64,000 bases of DNA from Fistulifera solaris. Taxonomy: Eukaryota > Bacillariophyta > Bacillariophyceae > Naviculales > Stauroneidaceae. The notes below the pieces were generated by a model, which was given only the letters and a program-made list of their open reading frames with translations, had not been told where the DNA came from and made no database searches. Shown here in pieces: positions 17,655-60,144 of the stretch (position 1 is its first letter; the number at the start of each line of letters is the position of its first letter). The stretch lies in contig AP026147.1 in NCBI GenBank assembly GCA_030295235.1, forward strand, positions 682,001 to 746,000, in the 5' to 3' direction. The position numbers and the translations under genes are program-made.

Positions 17655-19615
17655 TGAACGATGCAACGCTTTGAAATTTGGAAACAGAACGTTGATGGAA
17701 CGATTGATGCGACGCTTCTAATTTCTACGTATTTTCGCGTAGCTCTCGTAAGGAAATTTATCGACAGAAGGAAACCCGGATATTGCGTTTTTCGCCTTCA
17801 CCTATTTCTTGTATCCACAGGACACAGATGTCAACGTTTCTTTGCTCGCCGTATTCGAATCGTATTAAAAAGCAATAAAAGCCATCAATTTGGAAACATA
17901 ACGTTGATGGAACGAATGATGCAACGCTTCGAATGTCTACGTTATTTAACGTAGCTCTCGTAGGGAAATTTATCGACAGAGGGGAAACCCGGGCAACACA
18001 ATTTATAAGCCTTGATTCGTCCGTTTGAACAAAAGTGACTGTCAGCTTAACAACAACGTAGCAACCTCTTATTGATAATTAGATATCGATATCAACTTGA
18101 CTCAGAGCGATAAAATGAGGAAGATGCGTCGCATTGAAAGTCAACGTGTGTTTCACGTAGGCCTCGTAGGATTTTTTATCAATGTAGGTAACTGACTACA
18201 GTTTTCGCTATAGTACAATGCTGCGAACCTCGAAATAAAACGATGCGATGCTTTTTATTTTCGTTCTCGTCGTTGTCATCTTCACTTATTCATAGTCTAA
18301 TGATCTTGATGATAATGATTTAATCGTTTGATTTATTTGCATTTCGTTTCTACCTTGCTCTAGTCATCAATCCCGTTTTCGTCGGAGACGCAAATTGGCG
18401 ATCGAAAACTGGTCTCGAAAACGGAAACGGCTGAAAAGAAACGGCGCTCCGCACGACTTAACTCGACAATCAACCTGTCGCATCCTTCTTTCTTCTCACA
18501 AATCGCACCTTGTGTCAAATCACACACAAGATGCGATTTGTCACTCACAGAGCAGTGAATCTTTTCACTCGCTCACCTTGTTTCTATTTTGCGTATTGCA
18601 GTCAGATAATATAATGATCTTCGTCCGCAGGGAAGCCTCATACTGACGGGTAGTGCACGGGCCCTGCGGAGTAGCTTCCTGCCACAATGGGAGCAAGAGA
18701 AATCGCGTGTGCCTTGAGCCTCCGTCCTTCTCTTGCTCTGGAGAGAGGCCGAGTGATGTGCTGAGCCCTGAGGCCTTCACCGCTCCTCGCCTCAAATTCT
18801 CTGTTTCAAGGAATGAGTGTATGTGCTGTGCCTCGGGGCCTTCACCGCTCCTCGCCTTGATTCTCTTTTTCAAAGCGCCATGGCAAAGACCATGGACAAA
18901 GTGCGGCCTGAGGGTAACTTCAGTGTTGGTACCAGCGTATGCGTGGCAGGTTGCGAAGTAAGAGGAGAGAAGCTTACTCGACACCCAAAGATGGTGTCGT
19001 GCGGGAGGAAAAAGCCTCCAAGCAGAAATCCACGGTGACGACCTGGTATGCAATCACTCCGTAAAGTTGCCATGGAAATTCCACGACAGAGGAGGATGGC
19101 ACCAACGGCGACGGCCTCAAAAGAGGACTGATACGACCGATTGCGATGACCATACCTATCCCGGTGGCGTCCCCCAGATTCGTGGCCGACCCCCGCTAAA
19201 GGAGGGCCGACTGAAAACCAGCTGGAAGAGGTTAGCTCCATAGTAAGGCAGCATGGTAGAAATTCCACCCGAAGGATGACCCCGGCGACAAAAGTCGACT
19301 GAGAAGGCATACCTTGAGGTGGCGGCCCCGTGTTAGGGCAAAGTCCCAGCATCGAGAAGGCTCGCTCTACCCGACCCCAAAGGGGGAGTTGTTTGATTGC
19401 ATAAGCATACGCGTCCCCCGTCCGACAAAGGGCGGCGCCCAAAAGAGGTGAAAAATGGATCACAAAGTGTAAGCTCTCTTCCACACAGTCTCGGTCAAAG
19501 GACTGAGACTGCACCAGCAAAAAGCTGGCCTATAAGATCAATCTGACGCAAAAGTAAAATACAATAAAGAAAATAATATGATTAGAAACAAGCAACACAT
19601 AAGAAAACCGCTTAT
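17655..19615 (+). repeat. dispersed hairpin-chain repeat, copy A
   Basis: First of three long copies. It is built of (1) AT-rich tandem monomers of about 210 bp with the words ATTTATCGACAGAGG and GATGGAACGA, (2) an AT-rich middle from 18075, with GGCCTCGTAGGA, to the block GCTCTAGTCATCAATCCCG near 18358, and (3) a GC-rich part 18640-19555 that is a string of hairpins. Clear stems are 18691-18701 with 18728-18738 (11 bp), 18878-18883 with 18890-18895, 18980-18985 with 18993-18998, 19375-19378 with 19382-19385, 19488-19496 with 19501-19509, and 19514-19518 with 19524-19528. Loops are purine-rich. It ends near CAACACA..AGAA.CCGCTT. No conserved frame is shared by all copies. Family unknown. Confidence 0.85.
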
Positions 19616-20335
19616 ATTTAGTAGATCTCACAGAAATTCTGTTGTAGTCAAGAAATTGTGGACCAGTTTTTCGATGTCATCGAAATGCTGTGCGCGTTCC
19701 AAACAAACTGATAACGGTGGTCGGGATCATAACATGAAAAAGTGCGCGTTTCAACAATTCTTGAAACTACGTTTTGGATCCTAACGAAAGAAATCGCAAA
19801 TTCCAGAAATTATGGAATAAGTTTTTTCAGGATACAGAAATTCTGTGTTGGTCCAGAAATTCTGGACCAGTTTTTTTTCGATTTCACCGAAATGCTTTGC
19901 GCGTTCCAAACAAACTGATGAGCGTGTTTGGCATTAGAACGTGAGAAAGTGCGCGTTTCAACAATTCTTGAAACTGTGTTTTGGATCATATAGAAAGAAA
20001 GGCGAATTCCAGAAATTATGGAATAGGGTTTCCTAGTAATACAGAAATTCTGTGTTGGTCCAGAAATTTTGGACCAGTTTTTTCGATTTCACCGAATTGT
20101 TGTGCGCGTTCCAAACAAACTGATTAGCGTGTATGGCATCAGAACGTGAGAACGTGTGATTTCCAACAATTCTTGAAACTGTGTTTTGGATCCTGACGAA
20201 AGAAAGTGCAAATTCCAGAAATTCTGGAATAGGTTTTCCTGATCATACAGAAATTCTGTGGTGATGCAAATTCCAGAAATAAATTCTGGACCAGTTTTTC
20301 GATCTCTCCAAAATACAGAGTTTCTGGGGACAAAT
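19616..20335. repeat. dyad satellite, locus 1 (~205-bp units)
   Basis: About 3.5 units. The anchor GCGTTCCAAACAAACTGAT occurs near 19693, 19900 and 20108. Each unit has, in order, a TTTCGAT..ACCGAAA dyad, a GTTTCAA..TTGAAAC dyad, an ATTCCAGAA..TTATGGAAT dyad, CAGAAATTCTG and the long TGGTCCAGAA..TTCTGGACCA dyad. It directly follows the end of repeat copy A. Confidence 0.85.
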
Positions 20336-20397
20336 AAAACACAACAGGCGCAATTTTTCTGCTGGATAGTCGAAAGTGTAGGATCATTTTATCTACG

Positions 20398-20903
20398 AAT
20401 TTACTATGGGCCAAAGTGATAGTTTAAGGAGACCTCCACTGCATTATTTCAGTCATGAGTCATGAACCAATATTGTGTCAATCGACAATGCTGCCTACAA
20501 TTTACTCGCTTAGCTTTATTAATAAGCTCCACTTGTTGATGTTGCAGTGTAAAATGTTTTAGCATCATTTGCAATACATGTCAGTATAATTTACATGGAA
20601 CAGCCTTGCCAAACGTTGTATTCCGAATTTACTATGGGCCAAAGTGATAGTTTAAGGAGACCTCGACTGCATTTCAGTCATGAACCAATATTGTGTCAAT
20701 CGACAATGCTGCCTACAATTTACTCGCTTAGCTTTATGAATAAGCTCCACTTGTCGATGTTGTAGTGAAAAATGTTTTAGCATCATTTGCAATACATGTC
20801 AGTATAATTTACATGGAACAGCCTTGCCAAACGTGGTATTACGAATTTACTATGGGCCAAAGTGATAGTTTAAGGAGACCTCGACTGCATTTCAGTCATG
20901 AGC
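20398..20903 (+). repeat. tandem repeat, ~222-bp unit, 2.3 copies
   Basis: Units start with GAATTTACTATGGGCCAAAG at about 20398, 20625 and 20843 and run through CCTACAATTTACTCGCTTAG to CAGCCTTGCCAAACG. Copies are over 95% alike by eye, differing by small gaps (for example in CACTGCATTATTTCAGTCATG). The third copy is cut off shortly after CAGTCATGAG, about 160 bp before the adaptin start. Confidence 0.9.
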
Positions 20904-21063
20904 GAGACAACGTGTGCCTCTATGCGTCCTAGGCCGCGTTTTTCACCATGGCGCCATTTTCAACGCCCCCCGCCGTTTGTTATTCTTATTGCTTTGCAAT
21001 TTGACAAGACAGGCGACGTAGCAGTAAATACAGAAAAAAGAAGAAAAAGAGTTTATATCAAAC

Positions 21064-24040
21064 ATGTCGCCTCTCGGAAAGAAGGAGACTCAAAAGTACG
21101 TTGTCTTTATTGATTAATAAGTTGACGAATGGTTGCGGAGGCGTTGCGCTTTGATTGTTTATCATTTCTTCTCTTTTGCGTCTCATTCACTAACGTATGT
21201 ATTCCTTTAGTATTTTGCAACCCAGAAAAGGGTGAAATGCACGAACTGCGCATGGAATTGCATTCTACCGATCGGGCTGTCAAAGTTGATGCGGTCAAGA
21301 AAGTGATTGCCAGTATGACCGTAGGAAAAGATGTTTCGATGTTGTTTACGGATGTCTTGAATTGCGTACAAACGGGAAATATTGAATTGAAAAAGTTGGT
21401 TTATCTTTATTTGATTAACGTAAGTACAAGTCGACAGCATGCTGCTTTGTATATAACAGGGGTTGTGTATCTTTCTTTACTCACTCGCTTCCTATCTTAC
21501 AATGCCTGTTTAGTACTCCAAAACACAACCAGAATTGACGCTTCTCGCGGTCAATACATTCGTTAAAGATGCAAGTGATTCCAACCCTCTCATTCGAGCT
21601 TTAGCGGTCAGGACCATGGGTTGTATCCGTGTGGATCGCATCACTGAGTACTTGTGTGATCCTCTCAGTCGCGCTCTTCGCGATGAAGATCCCTATGTAC
21701 GAAAAACCGCTGCCGTTTGTGTCGCAAAGTTGTACGATATTGCTCCCGATCTCGTAGAAGAACGAGGTTTCATCGAAATCTTGCACGATCTCATCAGTGA
21801 CAGCAACCCGTCGGTCGTGGCCAATGGCGTGGCCGCATTGTCGGAAATTGCCGAGAGTTCCGGAAAAGATGTCATGCGAATTACTGCGTCAGTACTGCAG
21901 AAATTATTGGCGGCGTTGAACGAATGTACCGAATGGGGACAGGTCTTCATTTTGGATTCTTTGGCCAAGTACACCCCAGCCGATGGTCGCGAAGCGGAAG
22001 GGATCATTGAACGTGTTACCCCGCGTCTCCAACACGCCAACTCGGCCGTGGTCATGTCGGCCGTCAAGGTTATTCTCAGTTACATGGAACTCATGGGATC
22101 ACAAAACAGTGATGCCATTCGAGCCTTGACGCGCAAATTGGCACCGCCCTTGGTCACACTCTTGAATTCGGAGCCAGAAATTCAGTACGTGGCACTCCGA
22201 AACATCAATCTCATTGTGCAGAAACGACCCAATATTCTGGAGAACGAAATCAAAGTCTTCTTTTGCAAGTACAATGATCCAATTTACGTCAAAATGGAGA
22301 AGTTGGAAATTATCATCAAGCTGGTCAGCGAAAAGAACATTGACCAAGTGTTACTTGAACTCAAAGAATACGCCACAGAAGTCGATGTCGATTTTGTCCG
22401 TAAGGCAGTCAGTGCGATTGGACGTTGTGCGGTGAAACTCGAACGCGCTGCCGAACGTTGTATTGCTGTGTTGCTCGAATTGATTCAAACAAAGGTCAAT
22501 TACGTTGTGCAGGAAGCCGTAATTGTCATTAAAGATGTGTTCCGTCGTTACCCGAATCGGTACGAAAGTATCATTGCGACGTTATGCGACAATTTGGATA
22601 CCCTGGATGAACCCTTGGCCAAGGCTAGTATGATTTGGATTATTGGAGAATACGCGGAACGTATTGACAACGCGGACGAGTTGCTCGAGACTTTCTTGGA
22701 AACATTTGAAGAAGAGGACCCCGCGGTGCAGTTGCAGTTGCTTACCGCGACGGTGAAATGTTTTCTGAAGAATCCCGAGGATACGCAAGACATGGTGCAA
22801 CGTGTGTTGGATATGGCCACCGAGGAATCCGACAATCCGGATTTGCGCGATCGCGGTTTCATTTACTGGCGTCTGTTGTCGACGGATCCCGATGCGGCCA
22901 AAATTGTCGTTTTGGGTGACAAACCCGTCATTGAGGACGACACCTTCAAATTGGAACCGGCGTTGCTCAATATCCTCATTGGACAGATTGCTACTTTGAG
23001 TAGCATTTACCACAAGCCCCCGGATAGTTTTTGTGGTGCGTCGTCGTGCCGGTTTGCCCACCGAAGAGGATGACGAAGACGACGAGGAAGACGATGACGA
23101 CGAATACGATGAAGAGGTACGAGATAGTGGTGCGGGTGGAGTGGATCTCTTGGATATGGGCGGCATGTCAGTCAATGACCACAAGGTGAGTATTGAATCT
23201 AGGTGAACGTTTTGTTGTTCATTTACGCTTTCCAACTCATTCGCGTTCTAATCACCAATGCCAACGTTGAACGTTATTCATACACAGCAATTCACTCCAA
23301 CTGCACCCATGACTCGAGTGGCCGGCCCTGAGAAAGCGGGAGGTATCGAAGTGTTCAGCGGGTTTGTTCAGGAAGGTGGCAAAATCTTTATGGAGCTTGA
23401 GTTCAGTAACGTTTCGGCCGGGCAAGATATTAGTACATTTGCTATCCAGCTGAACAAGAACGCGTTCGGTCTGAGTCCTGCCAACCAGCAAGTTATTTTT
23501 CAACCACCTATTTCACCGGGTTCCAGTGGAACCACCCGTGTCGAAATGGCGATGAATCCAGCAATGCAGGTACCCACTCCCAATGGACAAAACGTCAACC
23601 CGCAGATCCAAGTCGCAATAAAGAATATGCACAACAATGGCGTCTTTTACTTTGCAGTAAATCTCAACTTCGAGTGTCTCTTCAGTGCCGATGGCGAGAT
23701 GGAAAAGACAGCATTCATTGAAGCATGGAAATCAATTGACGATCGACATGAATTGTACGCAACCGTGTCTGATCTGCCAGCCGATTCCACATCGATTGAG
23801 GACGTTCAACAAAAGTTTGCAGCGTACAACATCTTCTTTATTGCGAGACGTCCTGTACCAAACGCAGAAGGACAAGAAGTCGTATATTTTAGCATGAAAT
23901 CAGTCCATGGAATGACTTTCTTTGCGGAGTTGACGTTCAAACGAGGCGTCAACGCAGCCAAAGTGTGCTTGAAAACTGAAGCAACTTCGTACGGTGGTTT
24001 AGCAAAGAGTGCCCTGGAATCCCTGCTTCGTGGCGATTAA
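21064..24040 (+). CDS. clathrin adaptor beta subunit (AP-1/AP-2 beta adaptin)
   Basis: Large beta subunit of the AP-1 or AP-2 clathrin adaptor; many protists share one beta between both complexes. About 888 residues with introns near 21096-21210, 21420-21513 and 23186-23287. The trunk has '[11 protein letters not shown]', '[12 protein letters not shown]', '[18 protein letters not shown]', '[17 protein letters not shown]' and '[18 protein letters not shown]', nearly invariant in beta adaptins; an acidic hinge ([18 protein letters not shown]) follows at about 23066-23115, then the C-terminal ear from '[13 protein letters not shown]' to '[10 protein letters not shown]'. The frame breaks at the A4 run 21226-21229 (one A short: KKGE expected) and the T5 run 23028-23032 (one T extra: SFVVRRR expected). 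The phase at the first intron also does not fit exactly. Housekeeping role and intact sequence elsewhere argue for sequence error, not decay. Confidence 0.92.
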
Positions 24041-24410
24041 CTCATGAAATAACTTATACTCCTTATAGTTTGAAATTATTGAAATAAACGAAGTATTTAT
24101 TTTTGCGTAGCCATGCAAACTGCAACAGCTATCACGATTTGTTTGGTCATTGTAGATTTTCTTTCGAAACGAAACTACGCGGAATTTTGTGTCGAAGATG
24201 ATACCTGGTATGCCGGGAAAGCAATGCAGGTCATTGACCTTGTTGTGAGGCAGGTGACGGATCCAAATGTGCAGCGAATAAGAAGCATACTTTCATTCGG
24301 AGACCAACCGACAAAGAGTAATGTCCCAATTCCCAGTCGTCACAACAGGAGATGAAAAGAAATAGTTTCTTGAGACCCAGTTTTTCTCATTGACCAACTA
24401 GCCTCCCATG
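24041..24410. other. spacer between convergent genes
   Basis: 370 bp between the ends of the adaptin and palmitoyltransferase genes. An AATAAA-like word lies near 24082. An 80-codon open frame at 24113-24355 is not supported by any recognisable domain. Confidence 0.4.
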
Positions 24411-25586
24411 TTATGGCGCACGCACTTTCCGCAGTAATCTCTGCCGAGTGGAATAACCCATGACCCGATCATAGTCGTCAAACAAGGGATCGGTGGGAAG
24501 CATCCAAGTCCATTTGGGTCCAATTCCGAAAATATCCGTTAAGGGGATTTCGGCGGCTGTCTCATTGTGCCAAGTGTCGGCTAATTTCATTTTCAAGCGA
24601 TCAATTGTAGAAGTCCCCGTAACAACGTTGAATATGACATTCATTAGCATACTGCTCGTAAACATCAGCGCTCCCAAACTAATGAGACTCATCACGCGAA
24701 CCAAAACGATTTCCACACCAGTAAACTCGCAAAGGGCAGAAGTGCAAAAGAAGTAATTGACGATAAAGAGTAACAACACCAAAGCACTCGCTGTCCATGT
24801 GTAAATGAGGAAGAGTATGAAATGCTTCATGTTGGCCGCTCCGATGCAATTATTCATCCAGGGGCAGTGGTGATCCATGCCACTGATACATCGATTGCAT
24901 ATGCGACAGTGATGTGACTTTTCCGGCTTGTAGGTTTGACATTGACTGCACATGGAATGAAAGGTATTGTGCTGATGCTCCGGTAACGGCACCGCGGACG
25001 ACGGTACAGCTCCAGGATCGGTTAAAGCGGTCTTTGCGTGAGAAGACAGCATCAAGACCGCCAGAGTGCAGTACAAGCAAGTGAGCGTCAACGGCACATG
25101 ACCATGCACCGCCAGCAACAGAACCGTATAAATCGAATAACAAATTAAAATCCAGACCATCACTGACATGATAGACCCCGCGCGGTCTTTGTAATTGATC
25201 CAAACTCCATTTTCTTCTCTAGTTCCGATACTGCAAGACCAGGGCTCGTCATTTCCTGTATCTTCGTAATGTCGAGCATCTTCCAACGGCGGAACTGCTT
25301 TCAATGAAGACGCTTGCAATAAGCGATGCAGAGCGGCAAATGCTCGAACGAGAGGATTGCGTCGATCTTGTTTACTCAAATCAATCGTCGGAAGACCGAA
25401 ACTACTGTCATCAAGACTTTTATCGCGCTGATTCATGGGATGAAAGAAGCGCTTCTTCTCTTCGTCGTCATCGGCATGATCGAGAATGAGATCAAAGTCG
25501 TCGTCTTCGTCCTCATCGTTTCTTCGTTGCGTTGTTACACGAGTCCGCCGCACCAACGGCGTTCCTTCGTCACTGTCGTGCATCAT
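24411..25586 (-). CDS. DHHC-type protein S-palmitoyltransferase
   Basis: Zinc-finger DHHC acyltransferase that attaches palmitate to cysteines of target proteins on Golgi, endosomal or plasma membranes. About 391 residues in one exon. Layout: acidic N-terminus (DEDDDFDLILDHADDDEEKK), two hydrophobic helices ('MVWILICYSIYTVLLLAVHG' and the next), the cysteine-rich block 'CSQCQTYKPEKSHHCRIC', 'GMDHHCPWMNNCIGAAN' with the catalytic DHHC, two further membrane helices, and a cytosolic tail. All catalytic Cys and His residues are present. The open frame extends 19 codons further upstream but begins with TTG, so the ATG at 25586 (MMHDSDEG) is chosen. It is convergent with the adaptin gene. Confidence 0.92.
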   Translation of the reverse strand: MMHDSDEGTPLVRRTRVTTQRRNDEDEDDDFDLILDHADDDEEKKRFFHPMNQRDKSLDDSSFGLPTIDLSKQDRRNPLVRAFAALHRLLQASSLKAVPPLEDARHYEDTGNDEPWSCSIGTREENGVWINYKDRAGSIMSVMVWILICYSIYTVLLLAVHGHVPLTLTCLYCTLAVLMLSSHAKTALTDPGAVPSSAVPLPEHQHNTFHSMCSQCQTYKPEKSHHCRICNRCISGMDHHCPWMNNCIGAANMKHFILFLIYTWTASALVLLLFIVNYFFCTSALCEFTGVEIVLVRVMSLISLGALMFTSSMLMNVIFNVVTGTSTIDRLKMKLADTWHNETAAEIPLTDIFGIGPKWTWMLPTDPLFDDYDRVMGYSTRQRLLRKVRAP

Positions 25587-25734
25587 GATGTTTTTAATGA
25601 TACTAAGGGAAGGGAAAAGATAATGGAAAAGGATTACAAGCAACAGCTACGTATGCGGGTGCGCGAGGATACACGTAACAAGCATTTTTTATCCCTTTAC
25701 CGAAATACCAGGTAATGGAAAAGAGCTCGTTCAG

Positions 25735-26210
25735 AAATTCTGGAATCTGTGTTTATGAATAAAGAGGTCATTCAGAAATTCTGGAAACTGTGTTTTGGAT
25801 CATAAAAGGTTAGAAAGTGCGAATTCCAGAAAATCTGGAAAAGTTACTCGTGTTAATCATTTCATACAGAAATTCTGTGGTGGTCCAGAAATTCTGGACC
25901 AGTATTTTCGATCTCACCGAAATGCTGTGCGCGTTCAAAACAAACTGATTACGATGTAATGGATCCTAACGAGATACAATGCGCGTTTGAGAAGTTCTGG
26001 AATCTGTGTTTTGGATCATAAAAGGTTAGAAAGTGCAATTCCAGAAAATCTGGAAAAGTTACTCGTGTTAATCATTTCGTACAGAAATTCTGTGGTGGTT
26101 ATACAGAAATTCTGAGGTGGTCCAGAAAGTCTGCACCAGTTTGTTCTTTCTCAACGAAATGCTTTGCGCGTTCCAAACAAACTGATTTGGGTGTTTGGGA
26201 TCATGAGGTG
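25735..26210. repeat. dyad satellite, locus 2
   Basis: About two units of the same family as 19616-20335: CAGAAATTCTGTGGTGGTCC, GGTCCAGAA..TTCTGGACC, the GCGTTC.AAACAAACTGATT anchor (near 25934 and 26168) and TTCCAGAAAATCTGGAA dyads. It runs directly into repeat copy B. Confidence 0.85.
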
Positions 26211-26214
26211 AGGG

Positions 26215-28270
26215 TAGCGAAAAATATCGACAGAGGTAAACCCGGATATTGCGTTTTTCGCCTTCACCTATTTCTTGTATCCACAGGACACAGATGTCAA
26301 CGTTTCTTTGCTCGCCGTATTTGAATCGTATTAAAAAAGCAATAACAGCAATCAATTTGGAAACAGAACGTTGATGGAACGATTGATGCGACGCTTCTAA
26401 TTTCTACGTATTTTCGCGTAGCTCTCGTAAGGAAATTTATCGACAGAGGGAAACCCGGATATTGCGTTTTTCGCCTTCACCTATTTCTTGTATCCACAGG
26501 ACACAGATGTCAACGTTTCTTTGCTCGCCGTATTCGAATCGTATTAAAAAGCAATAAAAGCCATCAATTTGGAAACATAACGTTGATGGAACGAATGATG
26601 CAACGCTTCGAATGTCTACGTTATTTAACGTAGCTCTCGTAGGGAAATTTATCGACAGAGGGGAAACCCGGGCAACACAATTTATAAGCCTTGATTCGTC
26701 CGTTTGAACAAAAGTGACTGTCAGCTTAACAACAACGTAGCAACCTCTTATTGATAATTAGATATCGATATCAACTTGACTCAGAGCGATAAAATGAGGA
26801 AGATGCGTCGCATTGAAAGTCAACGTGTGTTTCACGTAGGCCTCGTAGGATTTTTATCAATGTAGGTAACTGACTACAGTTTTCGCTATAGTACAATGCT
26901 GCGAACCTCGAAATAAAACGATGCGATGCTTTTTATTTTCGTTCTCGTCGTTGTCATCTTCGCTTATTCATAGTCTAATGATCTTGATGATAATGATTTA
27001 ATCGTTTGATTTATTTGCATTTCGTTTCTACCTTGCTCTAGTCATCAATCCCGTTTTCGTCGGAGACGCAAATTGGCGATCGAAAACTGCTGAAAAGAAA
27101 CGGCGCTCCGCACGACTTACTTGACAATCAACCTGTCGCATGCACCCTTCTTTCTTCTCACAAATCGCACCTTGTGTCAAATCACACACAAGATGCGATT
27201 TGTCACTCACAGAGCAGTGAATCTTTTCACTCGCTCACCTTGTTTCTATTTTGCGTATTGCAGTCAGATAATATAATGATCTTCGTCCGCAGGGAAGCCT
27301 CATACTGACGGGTAGTGCACGGGCCCTGCGGAGTAGCTTCCTGCCACAATGGGAGCAAGAGAAATCGCGTGTGCCTTGAGCCTCCGTCCTTCTCTTGCTC
27401 TGGAGAGAGGCCGAGTGATGTGCTGAGCCCTGAGGCCTTCACCGCTCCTCGCCTCAAATTCTCTGTTTCAAGGAATGAGTGTATGTGCTGTGCCTCGGGG
27501 CCTTCACCGCTCCTCGCCTTGATTCTCTTTTTCAAAGCGCCATGGCAAAGACCATGGACAAAGTGCGGCCTGAGGGTAACTTCAGTGTTGGTACCAGCGT
27601 ATGCGTGGCAGGTTGCGAAGTAAGAGGAGAGAAGCTTACTCGACACCCAAAGATGGTGTCGTGCGGGAGGAAAAGCCTCCAAGCAGAAATCCACGGTGAC
27701 GACCTGGTATGCAATCACTCCGTAAAGTTGCCATGGAAATTCCACGACAGAGGAGGATGGCACCAACGGCGACGGCCTCAAAGAGGACCGATACGACCGA
27801 TTGCGATGACCATACCTATCCCGGTGGCGTCCCCCAGATTGGCGGCCGACCCCCGCCAAAGGAGGGCCGGCTGAAAACCAGCTGGAAGAGGTTAGCTCCA
27901 TAGTAAGGCAACATGGTAGAAATTCCACCCGAAGGATGACCCCGGCGACAAAAGTCGACTGAGAAGGCATACCTTGAGGTGGCGGCCCCGTGTTAGGGCA
28001 AAGTCCCAGCATCGAGAAGGCTCGCTCTACCCGACCCCAAAGGGGGTTGTTTGATTGCATAAGCATACGCGTCCCCCGTCCGACAAAGGGCGGCGCCCAA
28101 AAGAGGTGAAAAATGGATCACAAAGTGTAAGCTCTCTTCCACACAGTCTCGGTCAAAGGACTGAGACTGCGCCAGCAAAAAGCTGGCCTATAAGATCAAT
28201 CTGACGCAAAAGAAAACGTAAAAATAAAAAATAAACTAGAAACAAACAACACAAAAGAAGAACCGCTTCT
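26215..28270 (+). repeat. dispersed hairpin-chain repeat, copy B
   Basis: Second long copy, closely matching copy A. It starts with three tandem monomers of about 210 bp (ATCGACAGAGG near 26227, 26437 and 26645), then the AT-rich middle, then the GC-rich hairpin chain 27295-28205, and ends at CAACACAAAAGAAGAACCGCTT near 28266. A 279-codon minus-strand frame (27227-28066) stays open in this copy but is broken in A and C. The copy lacks part of a GGTCTCGAAAACGG block present in A and C near the GCAAATTGGCGATCG word. Confidence 0.85.
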
Positions 28271-30720
28271 AGTTAGTTGTACTACGTAGTTGTAATAGCA
28301 GCAGTAATATGATATATGAATGCTTTTCGTCGTACTTATCGTGACCACCAGCCTGTGAAACCGCGTTTGCAAGATGGACGGATAGATTAGAATGGCCATT
28401 TTTCTTGTGCACTCTTCTTCTAATCCCCATCCAACACTGGTTGTTACAGCCGAAGGCTTGGCTTGTAGTGTTGACGAGATGGTGTCATTTTCCAGTCGTC
28501 CATTATTCGTCAAGCATTGATCCATCTCATTGAATTCTTCAACATCAAACGAACGATACAGCTAGTCAATTCGTCTCCGACCGTCTTTGTTGTTAAGTCA
28601 TACAAACAATTCCAACATCTGAGGCGATAGAGGCTTGCTGAATTCAATGCCAAAGCCACATCAACTCGATGTTCATTCAACTTTGGTGCTCGCTTCTTCA
28701 TCTCATCTACTGGTTGCATCCGCGTCCGTTGTTGCATGCGGAGGAGCTGTGAGGCTGTGACTATTCCACCGAAACATTCCTGCAGAGCGTTCTCTGATAG
28801 TCGACGACTCGTCATTTTAGTGTCGAGTGAGACTAATCAAAGCTTGGATGACAGTCTTTCCGTGCATGTTGTAGTAGCAGCAGCTTGAAATCTTAGAGCT
28901 CCCGATGCAGCTGAACCCATTTCGACATTTACCGTACGTGTGAATTCATCTTTTGACAGAGGATTCTCTTCGAGTAACAAAGTTAGATTTCGTGCTTTCG
29001 TTTAGGATTTCAACAAAATACTCTTTCGACCATTCCGAGTGAACCCGGACTCGAAGTATCGCCACCGAAGTTGACACCGAGAAGATGCGCTGGCTCCGTC
29101 AATCCTTCACTTCCGGCATCGTAGTATTCCCGTCCATCGTCGCCGCTAGGATTATATGGTGTAATGAAGTCGGTAGGGCCGCCAGGGGCAATTTTTCGAC
29201 AAAGGATGCGAATTAAAAAGTAAGATTTTCGCGCTTTCGTTCAGCAATACAAACATTGCCGGTCATGTACGGCAAACAATCCTAGGCCTTGAAGAGTCCA
29301 TCGCTTTACTGAAGTTTCCAAGTCGTCGACGCTCTGAGCCAATATGATGATACTTGGTCTGGTCGTGGTCGTGACATTGATGAATGCTCGTTACTCTTTC
29401 GACACCTTGCGCTTATGCGAAGCTTGCTCATCGATGGCGAGGGAGCACTGACGTTTTTGCAAATCATCCGCAACGTTGCTTGGCGTTTTGTACCATTAAT
29501 CTGTTATGCGGTGCATCGTTTAACTAGTGTCGACGAAAATGAATTTTTCCCGCCCGTCTTTGCTGCATTGATCTCGTCAAGTATTCCCTGATCGGATCAG
29601 CAAATAGAGAAACGCCGTACAGGAAAGTCTGAATGAACTATCTATGCGTTCCATCTAAAGTCAGCCGACGCCCACAGAAAAAGAAATCAATAGAAGAAGC
29701 AAGGACATGGGCTCTTAATAAACGTCCCAATCCCCACTTCACAGACGACTCGATGATACAAGCGTCCAGAAATTGTCCCAATTCCCACTTCATGGACGCC
29801 TAGCAAGTGAGCGCTGGGCATGCATTTGCAGGAAGAACTTTGATGCATGATGGGAATCGGTGATTTAATATGAACTTGCCATGCCGCGAAATGCTAGCCA
29901 GCTCAGCGCACTACAAGTGGCTTGCGATAAATCGGCGATCATTCCTCTTTCGTTTTTGCCCCCGGCACGTCTCCATTTTACTATCCATGCAATTATTCGT
30001 GGACTAGACTACTTCAGTAAGCGCACTGATATTTTCGACACTGAAATAGGCCAAAGATCACGGGAGAATTCACGGCCAGTCGTTCAAAGAATCGCCCACC
30101 ACTTGATCTCTCATCAACGAACAATTCCGATTTTATTCGCGTTAGTACGACAATCTTCGATAAAGTCTTTCGTACGTTCGTACGCACTAAAGATGGTTGC
30201 AAGCTGTAGTTGACAACATGCGGATTGATGAGTATGATGCGCATGGTTGTTGAGTGCTTTTGTTCGAAAACACGGACGGCAATGACTTCGGGTCGTGTGA
30301 CCGGTGCAATCATGGCAATGGTGTCAGTTTCGTCATATTGCTCTTTCAAGGAGGGCAAAACATTGCTTGCAGAGCCCGAAAGACCAAATCTTCCTTATCC
30401 GCTCCTTCCGATATACTAGCGTCGCCAAACAGAGTTTGCAACTTGAATTCTTTGTCTATCAATCGTTTCCGTGTCTCGTGTTTATGACTTTTTTTTGAAA
30501 ATAGATGCAATCGGACTAGACGTTCATGACGAATCATCCATTGCCGCGTACTTTGCTAAGAACCCAAGCTTCGAAAGAGTCATCATACAACACAGTCATT
30601 TCTTCCGAATTGTTGTCCTCTTTCTTCTTCATTTTCTCCTTCCTCCACGTCATCTTATATAAACAACACGGCTATTTGTTCACATACACGGCAGTAAAGA
30701 TTTTTGCTGCTAGACGGAGC
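28271..30720 (-). pseudogene. degenerate coding remnants, family not recognised
   Basis: Minus-strand segments read like protein but change frame often. From high to low coordinate they include 'EEMTVLYDDSFEAWVLSKVR' (about 30530-30600), 'RKRLIDKEFKLQTLFGDASI' and 'GADKEDLVFRALQAMF' (30346-30480), 'YDETDTIAMIAPVTRPEVIA' (about 30270-30340), 'APGGPTDFITPYNPSGDDGR' with 'LTEPAHLLGVNFGGDTSSPG' (about 29030-29210), and 'ENALQECFGGIVTASQLLRM' (28730-28800) continuing to 'QAKPSAVTTSVGWGLEEEC' (about 28400-28480). I recognise no domain. It could be one decayed host gene with introns, or remnants of a transposon. The intervening 29220-29880 has no long frame. Repeats flank both sides, which fits a decayed accessory insert. 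Confidence 0.35.
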
Positions 30721-30931
30721 TTGTTTGCTTGCTTACAATGCTCGCATCAACGTTGTCATCACGCTGTGCTGAATGAGACGCCCTACCAGCAATCGCCAGT
30801 ACTGTATCGTTCTATCGTCTTCCCTGTCGTTAATACAGTAGTGGCAATCGCAAATTGCTGATCTGCTAATCGGCGATGTTTCGCGTGATGATCTCTTGAA
30901 CGGCTGCCAATTGGTGTTGTCGGAATAAAAC

Positions 30932-31100
30932 CACTCTCCCACATTTTCTGGAAACGTGAAAACCCCACCCCCACATTTTTTCGGAGAAGTGAAAAGAACA
31001 CTCTCCCACATTTTCTGGACATGTGAAAAGAACACACTCCCACATTTTCTGGAGACGTGAAAAGAACACTCTCCCACAATTTCTGGAGAGGTGAAAATAT
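30932..31100. repeat. 34-bp minisatellite, five copies
   Basis: Five head-to-tail units of about 34 bp, with ACATTTTCTGGA words starting near 30941, 30973, 31008, 31042 and 31076. The unit is roughly CTCTCCCACATTTTCTGGAG followed by ACGTGAAAAGAACA. TTTCTGGA echoes half of the dyad satellite motif, but the unit length is different. Confidence 0.85.
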
Positions 31101-31384
31101 CGCAAACATAAGTATTACTCCGTAAAAAATAATACAAGTAGCGACCGACAGCTTCATCAACAATGGATAACTTGCAATCTTCACATCATTGAACGATGAT
31201 AGTCTGCAACGACTTTCAGACTTTGATGACAGAGAGCGGTTGACAGTTAAGAACAGGCTAAGTCTTCTTTCATTTCCAGCAAGAGCTGAGACACTCAGGT
31301 AAAGTTTCACCGTAGGTGAATCAACATCGAGCTTATGAAAATTGGGCGAACGAACAAATTGTAAAGGTAGTAGCATTATGTCTG

Positions 31385-32105
31385 TTTTTGACTCAAATAA
31401 CTGGTCCAGAATTTCTGGCTGACACAAAACCACGGATTCCAGATTTTCTTGAATTTGCACAAACTGGCTGTAATTCTCGAAACACTAGTTCCCGTATAGA
31501 AGGAAAGTCCACAGCATTTCTGTATGACCCAAAACACCGATTCCAGAATATCTGGAACGTGCACGAAACGTCTGGTTTGACTCGAAACAACTGGTCCAGA
31601 ATTTCTGGACCAGTCACACAGAATTTCTGGACCAGTCACACAGAATTTCTGGCTGACACAAAACCACGGACTCCAGATTTTCTGGAATATGCACTCACTG
31701 GCTGTAATTCTCAAAATACTAGTTCTCGGATATCCCGAATCTCCACAGCATTTCTGTTTTTCGCAAAACACCGACATCAGAATATCTGGAACCTGTACGA
31801 AACGTATGTTTTGACTCCAAACAACTTTCTGGAACAGTCACACAGAATTTCTGGCTGATACAAAACAACGGATTCCAGATTTTCTGGAATATGCACTCAC
31901 TGGCTGTAATTCTCAAAACACTAATTTCCGACTATCAGGAACGTTCCCAGCAATTCTGTTTCTCACAAAGCACCGATTTCAGAATATCTGGAGCGTGCAC
32001 GAAACGTCTGTTTTTGACTCGAAACAACTGGTCCAGAATTTCTGGACCAGTCACACAGAATTTCTGGCTGACACAAAACCACCGATTCCAGAAGCAATGC
32101 CGAGA
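31385..32105. repeat. dyad satellite, locus 3 (~200-235 bp units)
   Basis: Three full units. The block GA.TCCAGATTTTCT starts at 31435, 31669 and 31871, with a fourth start at about 32084. Long CTGGTCCAGAA..TTCTGGACCAG dyads with 11-bp arms lie at 31591-31613 and 32028-32050. The fixed order is: long dyad, CACAGAATTTCTGG, GATTCCAGATTTTCTGGAAT, CTGGCTGTAATTCTC, a CAGCATTTCTG word, CAGAATATCTGGA, and CACGAAACGT. Confidence 0.88.
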
Positions 32106-32124
32106 GATGCTTTGCGACACAAAT

Positions 32125-32650
32125 AGTTGCGTTTCGAATGAAGATGAAGTTCATATATTGGTTTTTCCATGGTATTTGATTATACACTTCGTGCTTTTCT
32201 TTGTGGACAACTTTGGTGCCCTCATTGCTTCGGTGGCGTTTCAAGTGACTGAAATTAAGTCGCGATCGCGTACAACCAACACTTTACGACCATAGTGAAA
32301 ATGATGGCAGTTGACGATACGGATGCTTTTCGAAGCAAATACCAGTAGTTGCGTTTCGAATGAAGATGATAGTTAGATCATATATTGGTATTTCCATGGC
32401 ATTCGATTATACACTTCGCGGTTTTTTTATGTGGACAACTTTGCTCACATTATTGCTTCGGTGCCGTTCAAGTGACTGAAATTTAGTCGCGATGGCGTAC
32501 AACCAACACTTTACCATTATAGTAAAAATGGCAGTGGATGATACGGATGCTTTTCGACGCAAATTATTGCGTTTCGAATGAAGATGATACTGGTAGTTAG
32601 TTCAAATATTGGTATTTCCATGGCATTCGATTTTTACATCGCATAGACTA
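32125..32650 (+). repeat. tandem repeat, ~221-bp unit, 2.4 copies
   Basis: Units begin GCGTTTCGAATGAAGATGA at about 32129, 32350 and 32569, followed by ATATTGGT.TTTCCATGG, GATTATACACTTCG, TGTGGACAACTTTG, CGTACAACCAACACTTTA and GATACGGATGCTTTTCGA. The third unit stops near the start of hairpin-chain copy C. It is unrelated by eye to the other arrays. Confidence 0.88.
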
Positions 32651-32654
32651 AAAT

Positions 32655-34245
32655 TCGACATCAACTAACTTGACTCAAGACGAAGAAATGAGGAAAGATG
32701 CAAGGCAGCGAAAGTCTACGACGAATGCACGTAGGCCTCGTAGGAATTTTATCGATGTAAGTACGAGACTACAGACGAGACTACAGATTTCGTTATAGTC
32801 AGTAAGGTTACTTGTAGTCAGTAGCAACACCTCACACCTCGCGATGAGGCCTTCGATCGATCGTTCGTCGTCTGCTGTCGTCTCGTTATTGTCGCCTTTA
32901 TTTTTTGCACTTCTCATTCATAATGATCTTGATGAATAATAATTAACTTCTCATGTTTGATTTGTATTTCGTTTCTACCTTGCTCTAGTCATCAATCCCG
33001 TTTTCGTCGGAGACGCAAATTGGCGATCGAAAACTGGTCTCGAAAACGGAAACGGCTGAAAAGAAACGGCGCTCCGCACGACTTAACTCGACAATCAACC
33101 TGTCGCATCCTTCTTTCTTCTCACAAATCGCACCTTGTGTCAAATCACATACGAAGTGCGATTTGTCACTCACAGAGCAGTGAATCTTTTCACTCGCTCA
33201 CCTTGTTTCTATTTTGCGTATTGCAGTCAGATAATATAATGATCTTCGTCCGCAGGGAAGCCTCATACTGACGGGTAGTGCACGGGCCCTGCGGAGTAGC
33301 TTCCTGCCACATTGGGAGCAACGAGAAATCGCGTGTGCCTTGAGCCTCCGTCCTTCTCTTGCTCTGGAGAGAGGCCGAGTGATGTGCTGAGCCCTGAGGC
33401 CTTCACCGCTCCTCGCCTCAAATTCTCTGTTTCAAGGAATGAGTGTATGTGCTGTGCCTTGGGGCCTTCACCGCTCCTCGCCTTGATTCTCTTTTCAAAG
33501 CGCCATGGCAAAGACCATGGGCAAAGTGCGGCCTGAGGGTAACTTCAGTGTTGGTACCAGCGTATGCGTGGCAGGTTGCGTAGTAAGAGGAGAGAAGCTT
33601 ACTCGACACCCAAAGATGGTGTCGTGCGGGAGGAAAAAGCCTCCCAGCAGAAATCCACGGTGACGACCTGGTATGTAATCACTCCGTAAAGTTGCCATGG
33701 AAATTCCACGACAGAGGAGGATGGCACCAACGGCGACGGCCTCAAAAGAGGACTGATACGACCGATTGCGATGACCATACCTATCCCGGTGGCGTCCCCC
33801 AGATTCGTGGCCGACCCCCGCTAAAGGAGGGCCGACTGAAAACCAGCTGGAAGAGGTTAGCTCCATAGTAAGGCAGCATGGTAGAAATTCCACCCGAAGG
33901 ATGACCCCGGCGACAAAAGTCGACTGAGAAGGCATACCTTGAGGTGGCGGCCCCGTGTTAGGGTAAAGTCCCAGCATCGAGAAGGCTCGCTCTACCCGAC
34001 CCCAAAGGGGGGTTGTTTGATTGCATAAGCATACGCGTCCCCCGTCCGACAAAGGGCGGCGCCCAAAAGAGGTGAAAAATGGATCACAAAGTGTAAGCTC
34101 TCTTCCACACAGTCTCGGTCAAAGGACTGAGACTGCGCCAGCAAAAAGCTGGCCTATAAGATCAATCTGACGCAAAAGTAAAAGTACAATAAAGAAAATA
34201 ATATTATTAGAAACGAGCAACACAAAAGAAGAACCGCTTTATACT
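32655..34245 (+). repeat. dispersed hairpin-chain repeat, copy C
   Basis: Third long copy. It lacks the 5' tandem monomers and has a more diverged AT-rich middle (32655-32970). From GCTCTAGTCATCAATCCCG near 32985 it is nearly identical to copies A and B. The GC-rich hairpin chain is 33255-34165, and the copy ends at CAACACAAAAGAAGAACCGCTT near 34240. Small single-base length differences from A and B lie in short runs. Confidence 0.85.
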
Positions 34246-39865: not shown

Positions 39866-40065
39866 TTATTATTTCTTGATGCCTCATCGCGGGGCTTTGC
39901 TACTTGCTACAGGACTATAGCGGAAACTGTAGATTACTTTTTTTATCGATAAAATTCCTACGACGCCAACGTGAAACTCACGTAGACGTTGCATGCCTTG
40001 CATCTTTCCTGATTTCTTTCACTTTGAGTCAAATTGATGTCAACTTGTACGTTGAACGGTTAGGT
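39866..40065 (-). repeat. hairpin-chain repeat, short reversed fragment D
   Basis: Read on the minus strand, this matches the AT-rich middle of copies A to C: CAACTTGACATCAATTTGAC, AGGAAAGATGCAAGGCATGC, CACGT.GGCGTCGTAGGA and the GTAGCAA.G..GCGATGAGGC region of copy C. Only about 200 bp is present, and the GC-rich hairpin part is absent. Confidence 0.7.
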
Positions 40066-40109
40066 TGCTGCGTTGGAGATAAGGTTACAGTCACTTTTGT
40101 TGACTAAGA

Positions 40110-40890
40110 ACTTTTGTCATGAAGAATTCAAAAGCGAAGTATTCTGGAATTTGCACGTTCTTGCGTTATCATCCAAAATATGCTTTCCACGATATCTGAA
40201 AGGTGCACTGTTTTTCGTTACGATTTGAAACACCCTGCCCAGAAGTTCTGGAGCGTCAACAGCATCTTTGTAAGATCGAAAAATATGGTCCAGAATTTCT
40301 GGACCAAGACAGATTTTCTGTATGATTGACCTAATTTTTCCAGAATTTCTGGAATTTGCACGTTCTTGCGTTATCATCCAAAACATGGTTTTATAGTTTC
40401 TGGAAGGCGCACTGTCTTTCGTTACGATTCGAGACACCATGCCCAGAAGTTCTGAAGCGTGAACAGCATTTTTGTAAGATCGAAAAAGTGGTCCAGAAAT
40501 TCTGGACTAGGACAGATTTTCTGTATGATTGACTTAACATTTCCAGAATTTCTGGAATTTCCACGTTGTTTCGATATCATCCAAAATATGCTTTCCACGA
40601 TATCTGGAAGGTGCACTGTTTTTCGCTACGATTTGAAACACCCTGCCCAGAAGTACTGGAGCGTGAACAGCATCTTAGAAAGATTGAAAAAGTGGTCCAG
40701 AATTTCTGGCCACCACAGATTTTCTGTATGATTGACCTAATTTTTCCAGAATATTTTTCGTACTACGTAGTCTATAATCATTCACGCACCTTGGTTTCCA
40801 TAATTTCTGGAAGGCGCACTGTTTTTCGTTACATCGAAACACCCTGCCCAGAAGTTTTGGAGCGTCAACAGCATTTTAGAAAGATCGAAT
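40110..40890. repeat. dyad satellite, locus 4 (~203-bp units)
   Basis: Nearly four units. The GGTCCAGAA..TTCTGG dyad recurs near 40289, 40491 and 40694 (spacing 202-203). Each unit also has a TTCCAGAATTTCTGGAATTT dyad, CGTTATCATCCAAAA, a CACGATATCTGGAAGG block, TGCCCAGAAGTTCTGGAGCG and GACAGATTTTCTGTATGATTG. The order is the reverse complement of loci 3 and 5, so the array is inverted relative to them. It lies next to fragment D of the other family. Confidence 0.85.
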
Positions 40891-46069: not shown

Positions 46070-47025
46070 AAACGAAACGCAGCTCAAATTCCTGGACCAG
46101 TCACACAGAATTCCAGTTGGGCACAGAATCATTTACTCCGCATTCCAGAATTTCTGGAATAGGCATGAAATTGCCGTTCTACACAAAAACAATACGGAGT
46201 AATTCTAAAATTTCTAATACGTGATATTAATCTCTGTCGGATCCAAAACACCGATTTCAGACTGATTTCAGATTATCTGGAACGTGCAAGACATGGCTGT
46301 GTGACTTGAAACGACAAGTCCAGAATTTCTGGACCAGTCACACAGAAGTTCTGTCTGACACAGAACCACTTAGTCCGGATTCCAGAATTTCTGGAATGTC
46401 CACGAAATGGACGTTATACTCAAAACCAATAATTCTAGAATTTGTAATACGTTAACCTAATCTCGGACGGACGCAAAGCATCGATTTCAGATTATCTGGA
46501 ACGTGCAAGACATGGCTGTGTGACTTGAAACGACAAGTCTAGAATTTCTGGACCAGTCACACAGAATTTCTGTCTGACACAGAACCAATTACTCCGGATT
46601 CCAGAATTTCTGGAATGTGCACGGAATGGCCGTTATACTTGTACTCAAAACCAATAACTCTTGAATTTGTAATACGTTAACCTAGGTCTATTCTCTGTGG
46701 GATCCAAAGCATCGATTTCAGATTATCTGGAACGTGCAAGACATGGTTGTGTGACTGGAAACGACAAGTCCAATTTCTGGACCAGACACACAGAATTGAT
46801 TGACAAAATCTCTGCGTCACCCAAACTAGGTCTAACGATTCCAGAATTTTTGGAATGTGATCAAAATCTTTTGTGCGACGCAAAACATCGATTCCAAAAT
46901 TTCTGGATCTTCCAGACTTTCTGAATTTCTGGAACTTTTCGTAAAGACCGATATCCGAATTTTGGAAGGCACGCAAAATTTCTATGTGACGCGAAGCACC
47001 GATTTCCTCCAGATTTTTATTTAGA
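46070..47025. repeat. dyad satellite, locus 5 (~230-bp units)
   Basis: About four units. TGGAACGTGCAAGACATGG recurs near 46276, 46497 and 46729. Each unit has a TCCAGAATTTCTGGACCAGT dyad, CACACAGAATTTCTG, a CCGGATTCCAGAATTTCTGG dyad, CAAAACCAATAA.TCT, TTTGTAATACGTTAACCTA and GATTTCAGATTATCTGGAAC. Units are shorter and more eroded after 46800. Orientation matches locus 3. Confidence 0.88.
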
Positions 47026-47214: not shown

Positions 47215-47375
47215 TTGCCAGAGAGAAAAATTCTCTCTGAAGTGAGAAAATTTCTCTCTTTAGAGAGATTTTCTCTCGATTTCTCTCTTAGAGAGAAATT
47301 TTCTCCCTTAAAAGAGATATTTCTCCCTATTTCTCTCTTTAGAGAAAGTTCTCTCTGTAGAGAGATATTTTTTCT
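47215..47375. repeat. TTCTCTCT/AGAGAGAA palindrome cluster 1
   Basis: About 160 bp of interlocked short palindromes such as TTCTCTCTTTAGAGAGA and TTCTCTCTTAGAGAGAA, separated by TTTTCTCCC spacers. The same series recurs at 48078-48240. Confidence 0.85.
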
Positions 47376-48077
47376 ATGCTTTCGTTCACTTCTTTGTGTA
47401 ATTAAGGTTAAAAATCGACGATGAAGAGACCTCAACACACAACGAACAACCGTTATCGCACAAAACAACCAACGCAAAAACAAAAAGACGGTGCAGCGAG
47501 ACAAGCATTTCTAATTACTAAAATGTAATTTGTCCCCGATAGCTAGTCATCAATTGACCTCGTCAACAGGAACAATGGGGCTTAGCTTTGGAAAGACGAA
47601 TGGCGCGTGTGCAGGCCGAGTGCCATTTTTGGCTCGGCGTCGTGCTGTTTGGTGCGTTCCATTTTCAATTTCCCTTTTGTTTTTACTGTGAAAACATATT
47701 TGATCCGCGGCTCATTGGACACAGTTTGTCTTTTCCATGCTGACTGAAGAGTCTGGCAAATTTCCGCGGTCTGGGGCTGCTTCGTTTTCCCGGGCTTGTT
47801 GAGTTTCCAGCACGCCACGGCCGCATCTCAGATCATTCAGAGATTTCCCTCTTAATCCTTTGGTCTCTCATTCTTGCCATTAATCAAAAGCGTTAGATAA
47901 TAGGTTTTGAGTTGATATGAATTACTCTTTTGAAAAGAAACCTCTTTCGATACTTGTCAAGCAGAAAAGTAATGCACCGACGCGAACGACGCCCGACGCC
48001 CACATTGTACAGTACAAGTACATAAAATTCGTTCAACAGAGGAAAACTCTAAACAGAAATCGTCTTACTCCATAATG
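47376..48077. other. spacer between the two palindrome clusters
   Basis: No gene supported. A 79-codon minus-strand frame (47582-47818) is open but has no recognisable domain. Confidence 0.35.
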
Positions 48078-48240
48078 AAAATTTCTCTCTGAAGTGAGAA
48101 AATTTTTCTCTTAGAGAGAGATTTTCTCTCGATTTCTCCCTTAGAGAGAAATTTTCTCCCTTAAAGAGAAATTTTCTCCCTATTTCTCTCTACAGAGAGA
48201 ATTTCTCTCTATAGAGAGAAAATTTCTCTCTATAATGACA
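48078..48240. repeat. TTCTCTCT/AGAGAGAA palindrome cluster 2
   Basis: Second direct copy of the 47215-47375 cluster, with the same opening (TCTCTCTGAAGTGAGAAAAT) and the same order of blocks, 863 bp downstream. It ends with extra TTCTCTCTATAGAGAGAA palindromes (perfect dyads). Confidence 0.85.
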
Positions 48241-59236: not shown

Positions 59237-60144
59237 CTACAGCGTGTTAATGTATTCTTTCTTCCACAGATCGTATAGTTGCTGATCTGTGGTATCTGCT
59301 TTGCGCATATAGACGCATAGCTTCGACCCCGATTCTTCTACCAGGTTGAGAAATGAGTCCGCCTTTCTATATTGATAGAGTTTCTTTTGTTCTGTACAGT
59401 CATGAAAGAGGACTTTTGTCTTGGTGGGGTCTCCTCCTCGCGCACTCGCATGCAAAAAGGCTATTAACATACACGCCAATCGGTATCTTCCGTCTACCAT
59501 GTACACATCGAACGGTAACTCCTCCGACAACATGGGGGCTACTTGATAATCGAGCGATGCTTTCGCCAGCTCCTTTTCTGGATATCCCCAAATTCCAGTC
59601 TTTCCAATGTCGGCAAGGTAGAATCGAAAATGAGGCAACGATTTATCTCTGGCGTTGGCGACCCATTCCGCATCGGAATCAATCCCAGCATAGCGACGGA
59701 CTCCAACATGACTGGCGATATACGTTGATTCACCGAGTCCCCATTCAAAAACTGAGTCTGCTTCACTGTATATTCTACCCAATAAAGTTCTATCTTGATC
59801 CGTTAATCCGCCGGTTGTTTTCTGAGTCCACGAAGCAAGGCGAAATGTCGTGCGTGGTTCTGTAGGGGTGTGTTGTAACGTAATATTCAAGGAATCTTGC
59901 GCCGCTCGGTCAAAGAACGTAAGCGAATTTTTGTTGTCTGCTCCTCTTATTTGAGAAGACTTCAAAATAGTCGTACCAGTATCAGTTGGAGGCAAAAGAC
60001 AAGCAACGAAGATCCTTTCAAAAGATGAACCGGTCGAACGGCAAGTAATATCACAAAAACCAAACAACCCAATATCGACTGAATGATAAAGGTTATTCGC
60101 AGATTGCGCGAAGTTCTTCTTGATACAGCTGAAATGGTGGCCAT
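59237..60144 (-). CDS. membrane-anchored methyltransferase-like protein, copy 1
   Basis: About 302 residues. One N-terminal signal anchor ('RITFIIQSILGCLVFVILLA'), a short stem with 'FFDRAAQDSLNITLQ', then a Rossmann-type domain: 'VFEWGLGESTYIASHVGV' (Gly-rich SAM-type loop), 'YAGIDSDAEWVANAR' (acidic end of strand 2), 'FDVYMVDGRYRLACMLIAFL' and 'TKVLFHDC'. This matches class I SAM-methyltransferase-like proteins of unknown substrate, probably facing the Golgi lumen and acting on sugars. The frame changes once in the stem near 60000. The next gene upstream (60617-61523) is a paralogue in the same orientation, very similar from 'TTGGLT' to the end. No better-known family is recognised. Confidence 0.68.

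What the first reader, a model, noticed from the sequence alone, without database searches (positions are those of the whole stretch)
18640..34165. GC-rich hairpin-chain element in three copies looks like a structured RNA
The 0.9-kb 3' parts at 18640-19555, 27295-28205 and 33255-34165 consist of successive hairpins with purine loops (for example an 11-bp stem at 18691/18728, CCATGG arms at 18878/18890, a 9-bp stem at 19488/19501, and a 5-bp stem at 19514/19524). They also contain an internal duplication of the CTTCACCGCTCCTCGCCT block. Copies are nearly identical and far more GC-rich than their surroundings. No shared open frame explains the conservation. It may be a non-coding RNA or the RNA part of a mobile element.
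Basis: partly seen in the sequence, partly recalled or inferred. Interest (0 to 1): 0.75.

Follow-up and report, generated by a model that had tools for sequence, protein, structure and literature searches.

The report
Three copies of structured non-coding RNA
A stretch of algal-type nuclear DNA carries three near-identical, apparently non-protein-coding sequences of about 960 bases whose RNA would fold into one closed, many-armed structure with a repeated A-rich loop; it looks like an undescribed kind of large RNA gene, although no RNA has yet been shown to be made.

Summary
Three same-strand copies (18596-19553, 27258-28211, 33221-34177) are 97.5-100% identical by segment and 55% GC against 38-45% nearby. 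No long frame is intact in all three; tested frames match neither Pfam nor PDB. Rfam does not know the RNA. Between these ends + strand fold z-scores are -6.4, -8.6 and -6.7, although a palindromic array in the window scores as low. Identity drops from about 99% to 80-90% right after the closing helix. The 3' part has 11-12 AAA-loop hairpins, against at most 7 in 698 control windows. Differences between copies favour the + strand fold, clearly for copy 2, weakly for copy 3. Best reading: a three-copy gene for a ~0.96-kb structured non-coding RNA, probably made by RNA polymerase II, whose AAA-loop hairpins dock a protein (last step inferred). There is no two-sided covariation, no transcript data and no relative elsewhere. 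A mobile-element origin is not excluded but found no support.

The parts
18596..19553 (+). RNA body, copy 1 (between the closing-helix arms)
27258..28211 (+). RNA body, copy 2
33221..34177 (+). RNA body, copy 3
18596..18621 (+). 5' arm of the closing helix, copy 1 (TTGC, 1-nt bulge, GTCAGAT, 7-nt bulge AATATAA, TGATCTT)
19534..19551 (+). 3' arm of the closing helix, copy 1 (AAGATCA, ATCTGAC, GCAA)
18751..18873 (+). 65-bp internal tandem duplication, copy 1 (also 27413-27535 and 33377-33498)
18874..19553 (+). 3' part of copy 1 with 11 AAA-loop hairpins (12 in copy 2, 27536-28211; 11 in copy 3, 33498-34177)
18964..19481 (+). span of a predicted long-range 13-pair helix, 18964-18977 with 19469-19481; taken alone not better than chance
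18346..18595 (+). conserved upstream DNA (96.6-100% identical; copy 2 has a 19-nt and a 1-nt deletion and a 4-nt insertion); promoter or 5' leader
18498..18541 (+). upstream hairpin with 17 predicted pairs; of four changes in copy 3, two become G-U pairs on the + strand and two move one mismatch
18550..18574 (+). second upstream hairpin, identical in the three copies
19554..19622 (+). A-rich, faster-changing tail; AATAAA at 19563 (28223 and 28230 in copy 2, 34188 in copy 3)
18028..18214 (+). upstream repeat module, copy 1; also 26707-26892 (copy 2) and, diverged, 32667-32799 (copy 3)
39914..40101 (-). the same module at a fourth place, about 74% identical, with no match to the RNA body nearby

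Best explanation
Each copy is a gene for a long non-coding RNA of about 0.96 kb, read from the + strand. Seen in sequence: the two ends of the conserved block are complementary and are predicted to close the RNA into one multi-branched fold; the 3' two-thirds carries 11-12 hairpins with AAA-containing loops; no long protein frame is intact in all three copies; copies differ mostly where the + strand fold tolerates it. Inferred: transcription by RNA polymerase II (AATAAA just past the closing helix in all copies; no A or B box; no T-run after the 3' end, while a T4-T5 run lies inside the body); copies kept alike by gene conversion and/or selection; function as a scaffold or sponge whose repeated AAA-loop hairpins bind several molecules of one RNA-binding protein. 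I hold the structured-RNA step at about 0.6 and the multivalent-docking step at about 0.3.
For: Fold z on the + strand -6.44, -8.62, -6.73, 0/60 shuffles each. Closing helix keeps p>=0.96 for 13 of the 14 pairs tested in all three copies when folded with about 400 nt upstream and 250 nt downstream. AAA-loop hairpins 11 against 2.0 expected (0/300 shuffles; 0 on the minus strand) and CAAAG 9 against 2.1 (0/2000); 11/12/11 against a maximum of 7 in 698 control windows. Placement of changes, + strand: copy 1 to 2 z -4.41 (0/45) and -3.67 (0/100), copy 3 to 2 z -3.99 (0/45). Of 7 substitutions in the copy-2 body 6 are paired in copy 2's fold, three of them improving consensus pairs; of 8 in copy 3, 2 keep a pair as G-U, 3 make a new pair, 2 are unpaired, 1 loses a pair. 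Tail 80-90% against body about 99% identity, Fisher p 5e-12, 7e-5, 7e-6 for the three comparisons. Coding: the minus-strand frame shared by copies 1 and 3 (about 170 aa) is broken in copy 2, and 4 of 5 substitutions in it change the amino acid; no Pfam family above its cut-off and no PDB match for the longest frame.
Against: No two-sided compensatory change in 346 consensus pairs. Copy 1 to 3 placement is weak (+ strand 4/45 and 8/100; minus 24/45 and 9/100), and the minus strand also leans low for copy 2 (1/45, 1/100, and 0/45 from copy 3). Three of the seven copy-2 substitutions favour a helix that is not in the consensus fold. The minus strand also folds well (z -5.21, -5.41, -4.08), and a palindromic array gives equally low z. 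Cuts without the 5' arm already gave z -3.33 in copy 1 and -5.08 in copy 3 (20 shuffles each), so the arm does not carry the signal alone. As a helix, the closing stem depends on the search space: 0/500 in a narrow window chosen after seeing the fold, but 17/500, 173/3000 and 43/1000 in wide searches, where an unrelated 14-bp pairing ties with it. AATATAA in the 5' arm could be a TATA box, which would put the transcript start after part of that arm. An AATAAA in an A-rich tail is weak evidence. No transcript data and no relative from another genome.
Confidence: 0.6

Rival explanations
1. The RNA moiety or body of a non-autonomous mobile element or dispersed repeat family: structured, non-coding, spread by enzymes encoded elsewhere, not a host RNA gene.
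For: Three near-identical copies lie between unrelated genes, with repeat modules around them. Copies end at a similar 3' point near AACCGCTT after an A-rich tail. Genome-wide copy number is unknown.
Against: No target-site duplication beyond chance in any copy, no terminal repeats in copy 1 (the only copy searched for them); upstream homology of unequal extent; all three copies on one strand within 16 kb; no reverse transcriptase, integrase or transposase family among the 36 of 99 ORFs of at least 100 aa that I scanned.
Confidence: 0.2
2. A DNA-level feature: palindrome-rich repeat DNA, as in the neighbouring tandem arrays, that folds on paper but has no RNA function.
For: Palindromic arrays nearby give equally low fold z; both strands of the element fold well; the upstream hairpin is almost symmetric at DNA level.
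Against: AAA loops are on the + strand only; G-U-keeping changes in the upstream hairpin pair on the + strand only; the body is not a tandem array apart from one 65-bp duplication; the fold is multi-branched rather than a row of perfect palindromes.
Confidence: 0.13
3. A decayed or unusual protein gene on the minus strand.
For: A 279-aa minus-strand frame in copy 2; frames of 216 and 185 aa in copies 1 and 3 share about 170 aa.
Against: No frame is common to all three copies over its length; 4 of 5 substitutions between copies 1 and 3 in the shared stretch change the amino acid; no Pfam match above cut-off, no PDB match.
Confidence: 0.05

Closest known systems
Diatom long intergenic non-coding RNAs (Phaeodactylum tricornutum, PMC7445176; passages seen)
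   Same: Intergenic and without a protein frame, in a nuclear genome of probably the same kind of alga
   Different: Those lincRNAs are described there with a median size of 482 nt and lower GC than mRNAs, and the term secondary structure does not occur in that text; this one is about 960 nt, GC-rich, strongly folded and in three copies
Protein-sponge RNAs of the CsrB/RsmZ kind (recalled, from no call)
   Same: One hairpin-loop motif repeated many times along one RNA, often more than one gene
   Different: Bacterial, shorter, GGA loops; here AAA-containing loops in a multi-branched fold, and no partner protein known
Closed multi-branched RNAs such as rRNA domains, RNase P/MRP, SRP, telomerase RNA (recalled)
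   Same: Ends paired around a multi-branched fold
   Different: No Rfam match at gathering level, none at E<=5 apart from a chance-level bacterial sRNA; no telomere-template-like stretch over 7 nt on the + strand
Non-coding LTR derivatives (LARD/TRIM; recalled)
   Same: Conserved, non-coding, several copies
   Different: No terminal repeats in copy 1 and no target-site duplications

Membership tests
Any Rfam family | Covariance-model score above the family's gathering score | tested here: not met
   0 matches in the window; with lax filters only Atu_C9 on the minus strand, 13.3 bits against 40, E 0.81
Telomerase RNA | Template of about 1.5 telomere repeats in the transcribed strand (rule and repeat units recalled) | tested here: not met
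   + strand best ACCCCAA (7 nt); ACCCTAAC (8 nt) only on the minus strand of copy 3. The telomere repeat of this organism is unknown
Pol III-transcribed RNA with internal promoter | A and B boxes, T-run terminator (consensus recalled) | tested here: not met
   No A or B box; no T4 between the body's T-run and the end of the tail, but T5 (T4 in copy 3) inside the body. External promoters not tested
LTR or target-primed retroelement | Terminal repeats or target-site duplications | tested here: not met
   Target-site test in three copies, terminal repeats in copy 1 only
Structured non-coding RNA gene | Fold more stable than composition gives | tested here: met
   with the caveat
Structured non-coding RNA gene | Two-sided compensatory changes | tested here: inconclusive
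   0 of 346 pairs in three copies at about 99% identity
Structured non-coding RNA gene | A transcript | not testable with these tools
   no expression data held
Multivalent sponge or scaffold RNA | One loop motif repeated beyond chance | tested here: met
Multivalent sponge or scaffold RNA | A protein that binds the motif | not testable with these tools
   no binding data
Protein-coding gene | A frame kept across copies | tested here: not met
   Pfam and PDB

The most novel reading that the evidence does not exclude
An undescribed family of large (about 0.96 kb), closed, multi-branched non-coding RNA in an algal nucleus, whose repeated AAA-loop hairpins form a multivalent docking platform or sponge for one protein and which is kept in several clustered copies.
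Probability: 0.3. Interest if true: 0.75.

Novelty: new variant of a known kind. Interest (0 to 1): 0.5.

Why it matters
From recalled knowledge, large RNAs with one elaborate fold are few in eukaryotes and most belong to ancient machines. A clustered, AAA-loop-rich RNA of this size outside Rfam would be a new RNA family, and its sharply predicted ends and loop motif make it directly testable by RNA-seq, RACE and probing. Seven full-text searches found no description of it; they cover open-licence papers only and used general terms.

Tried and rejected
Known RNAs: no Rfam match above threshold, no tRNA, no longer telomere-template-like stretch on the + strand, no RTGATGA box.

Protein coding on either strand: rejected. 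The weak SopD hit of one + strand frame (12.2 bits against a cut-off of 25, E 0.1) is taken as chance.

Relatives elsewhere: no match in phage or plasmid records, none for exact 22-26-nt patterns in viral contigs or prokaryote genomes. These are not collections of eukaryote genomes, so this says little. The window's own genome is not held, so copy number is unknown.

More diverged copies in the window: nhmmer without filters found only the three copies, reverse-strand hits of the upstream palindrome on itself, and one E 7.2 hit.

Helix tests that did not help: wide duplex energy (17/500), gap-tolerant alignment (173/3000), two-stem test (43/1000), long-range helix 18964/19481 (129/500; 313/3000).

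Literature: PMC8329260 (passages and section 7), PMC7445176 (passages), PMC4247016 (abstract and outline); all other papers seen only as search listings.
Full report
What the window is. The 64 kb has 45.1% GC and carries eukaryotic genes: a BT1 transporter, an RNA polymerase largest subunit spread over five ORFs (as expected with introns), beta-adaptin, myosin, a DHHC transferase and cysteinyl-tRNA synthetase. The synthetase begins with a signal-peptide-like stretch ending QAW, which together with the GC content would fit a diatom; this assignment is inference from recalled knowledge. The genome is not held.

The copies. Self-comparison finds three same-strand copies. By segment they are 97.5-100% identical from 18596 to 19553 and 96.6-100% in the 250 nt upstream (copy 2 has a 19-nt and a 1-nt deletion and a 4-nt insertion there). 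Further upstream copy 3 falls to 75% and 66% while copies 1 and 2 stay at 99.7-100%. The 69-nt A-rich tail is 80, 90 and 86% identical in the three comparisons, and beyond it identity is 39-63%. The tail/body contrast is significant each time (Fisher 5e-12, 7e-5, 7e-6). Selection on the body or gene conversion limited to it could cause this; the data do not separate them.

Not a protein gene. Copies differ by 1-2 nt indels, several in A-runs of predicted loops. The longest frame, 279 aa on the minus strand of copy 2, exists only there. Copies 1 and 3 share about 170 aa of another minus-strand frame that copy 2 breaks, and 4 of the 5 substitutions between them in it change the amino acid. Copies 1 and 2 share a 102-aa + strand frame that copy 3 lacks. 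Six frames gave no Pfam match above cut-off, and the 279-aa frame has no PDB match.

The fold. Cuts without the 5' arm gave z -3.33 for copy 1 and -5.08 for copy 3 (20 shuffles each). A wider cut showed that 18596-18621 pairs with 19534-19551 as 4+7+7 pairs with a 1-nt and a 7-nt bulge. Cut at these ends, z is -6.44, -8.62 and -6.73 on the + strand and -5.21, -5.41 and -4.08 on the minus strand, 0 of 60 shuffles in each case. The helix stays (p>=0.96 for 13 of 14 pairs) when flanks are folded along. Its weight as a helix depends on the search space: 0/500 in a narrow window chosen afterwards, but 17/500, 173/3000 and 43/1000 in wide searches. What gives it weight is that its 3' arm ends where conservation ends. 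Control: 14 of 16 random windows of the same length gave z between -1.65 and +2.78; the other two, over the palindromic array at 31.1-32.4 kb, gave -8.88 and -6.57. So low energy alone does not prove an RNA. In 150-nt windows the signal is uneven (5 of 13 below -2).

The loop motif. In copy 1, 11 hairpins with stems of at least 4 pairs have an AAA-containing loop, against 2.0 expected (0/300 shuffles), and 0 on the minus strand. In the 3' parts the counts are 11, 12 and 11; 698 overlapping control windows from both strands average 1.58, maximum 7. CAAAG occurs 9 times against 2.1 (0/2000). This is the most specific feature and it points to the + strand.

Differences between copies. Observed changes were moved to random places with the same starting base. 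Real copy 2 folds better than all simulated ones on the + strand (0/45 and 0/100 from copy 1, 0/45 from copy 3), and nearly so on the minus strand (1/45, 1/100, 0/45). Copy 3 is weak: + strand 4/45 and 8/100, minus strand 24/45 and 9/100. One search moved all changes over a cut with the upstream hairpins; one search moved only substitutions within the body. Of 7 copy-2 substitutions 6 are paired in its fold, three of them in a helix absent from the consensus; of 8 in copy 3, two stay paired as G-U, three make a new pair, two are unpaired, one loses a pair. RNAalifold finds no two-sided change in 346 pairs.

Expression signals. AATAAA lies 10-19 nt after the body in all copies; no A or B box; no T-run after the end, but one inside the body. 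In an A-rich tail AATAAA is weak evidence.

Mobile-element test. No target-site duplication, no terminal repeats in copy 1, unequal upstream extents, and no transposition enzyme among 36 of 99 ORFs scanned. The upstream module occurs once more at 39914-40101 (-) without a match to the RNA body.

Comparison with the known. No Rfam family. Passages of PMC7445176 describe diatom lincRNAs with a median of 482 nt and lower GC than mRNAs; this element is longer and GC-rich. Seven searches gave no paper on such an RNA.

Verdict. A structured non-coding RNA is favoured, not proven. The mobile-element part is unsupported but open. A multivalent AAA-loop platform is the mechanism I think most likely, and it is inferred.

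Noticed in passing
19630-20314, 25771-26212, 31407-32092, 40142-40889, 46087-46797: Intergenic tandem arrays with units of about 200-235 bp, rich in the palindrome CCAGAANTTCTGG (16 in the window, 0 expected in 20 shuffles). TTCNNGAA is enriched (61 against 33) but GAANNTTC is not (28 against 35), so plain heat-shock elements are not a full explanation.
   Followed up: partly
39914-40101 (-): Fourth copy of the module that lies upstream of the RNA bodies (about 74% identical to copies 1 and 2), here without a match to the RNA body.
   Followed up: partly
47220-47375 and 48077-48229: Two arrays of short AGAGAGAAATTTCTCTCT-like palindromes about 0.9 kb apart, 90% identical to each other.
   Followed up: no
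59436-59764 and 60834-61162: Repeat at 81% identity inside two minus-strand ORFs of 276 and 274 aa without Pfam match; perhaps paralogous genes.
   Followed up: no
30932-31097: 34-bp tandem repeat, 4.9 copies, consensus CACTCTCCCACATTTTCTGGAGACGTGAAAAGAA.
   Followed up: no
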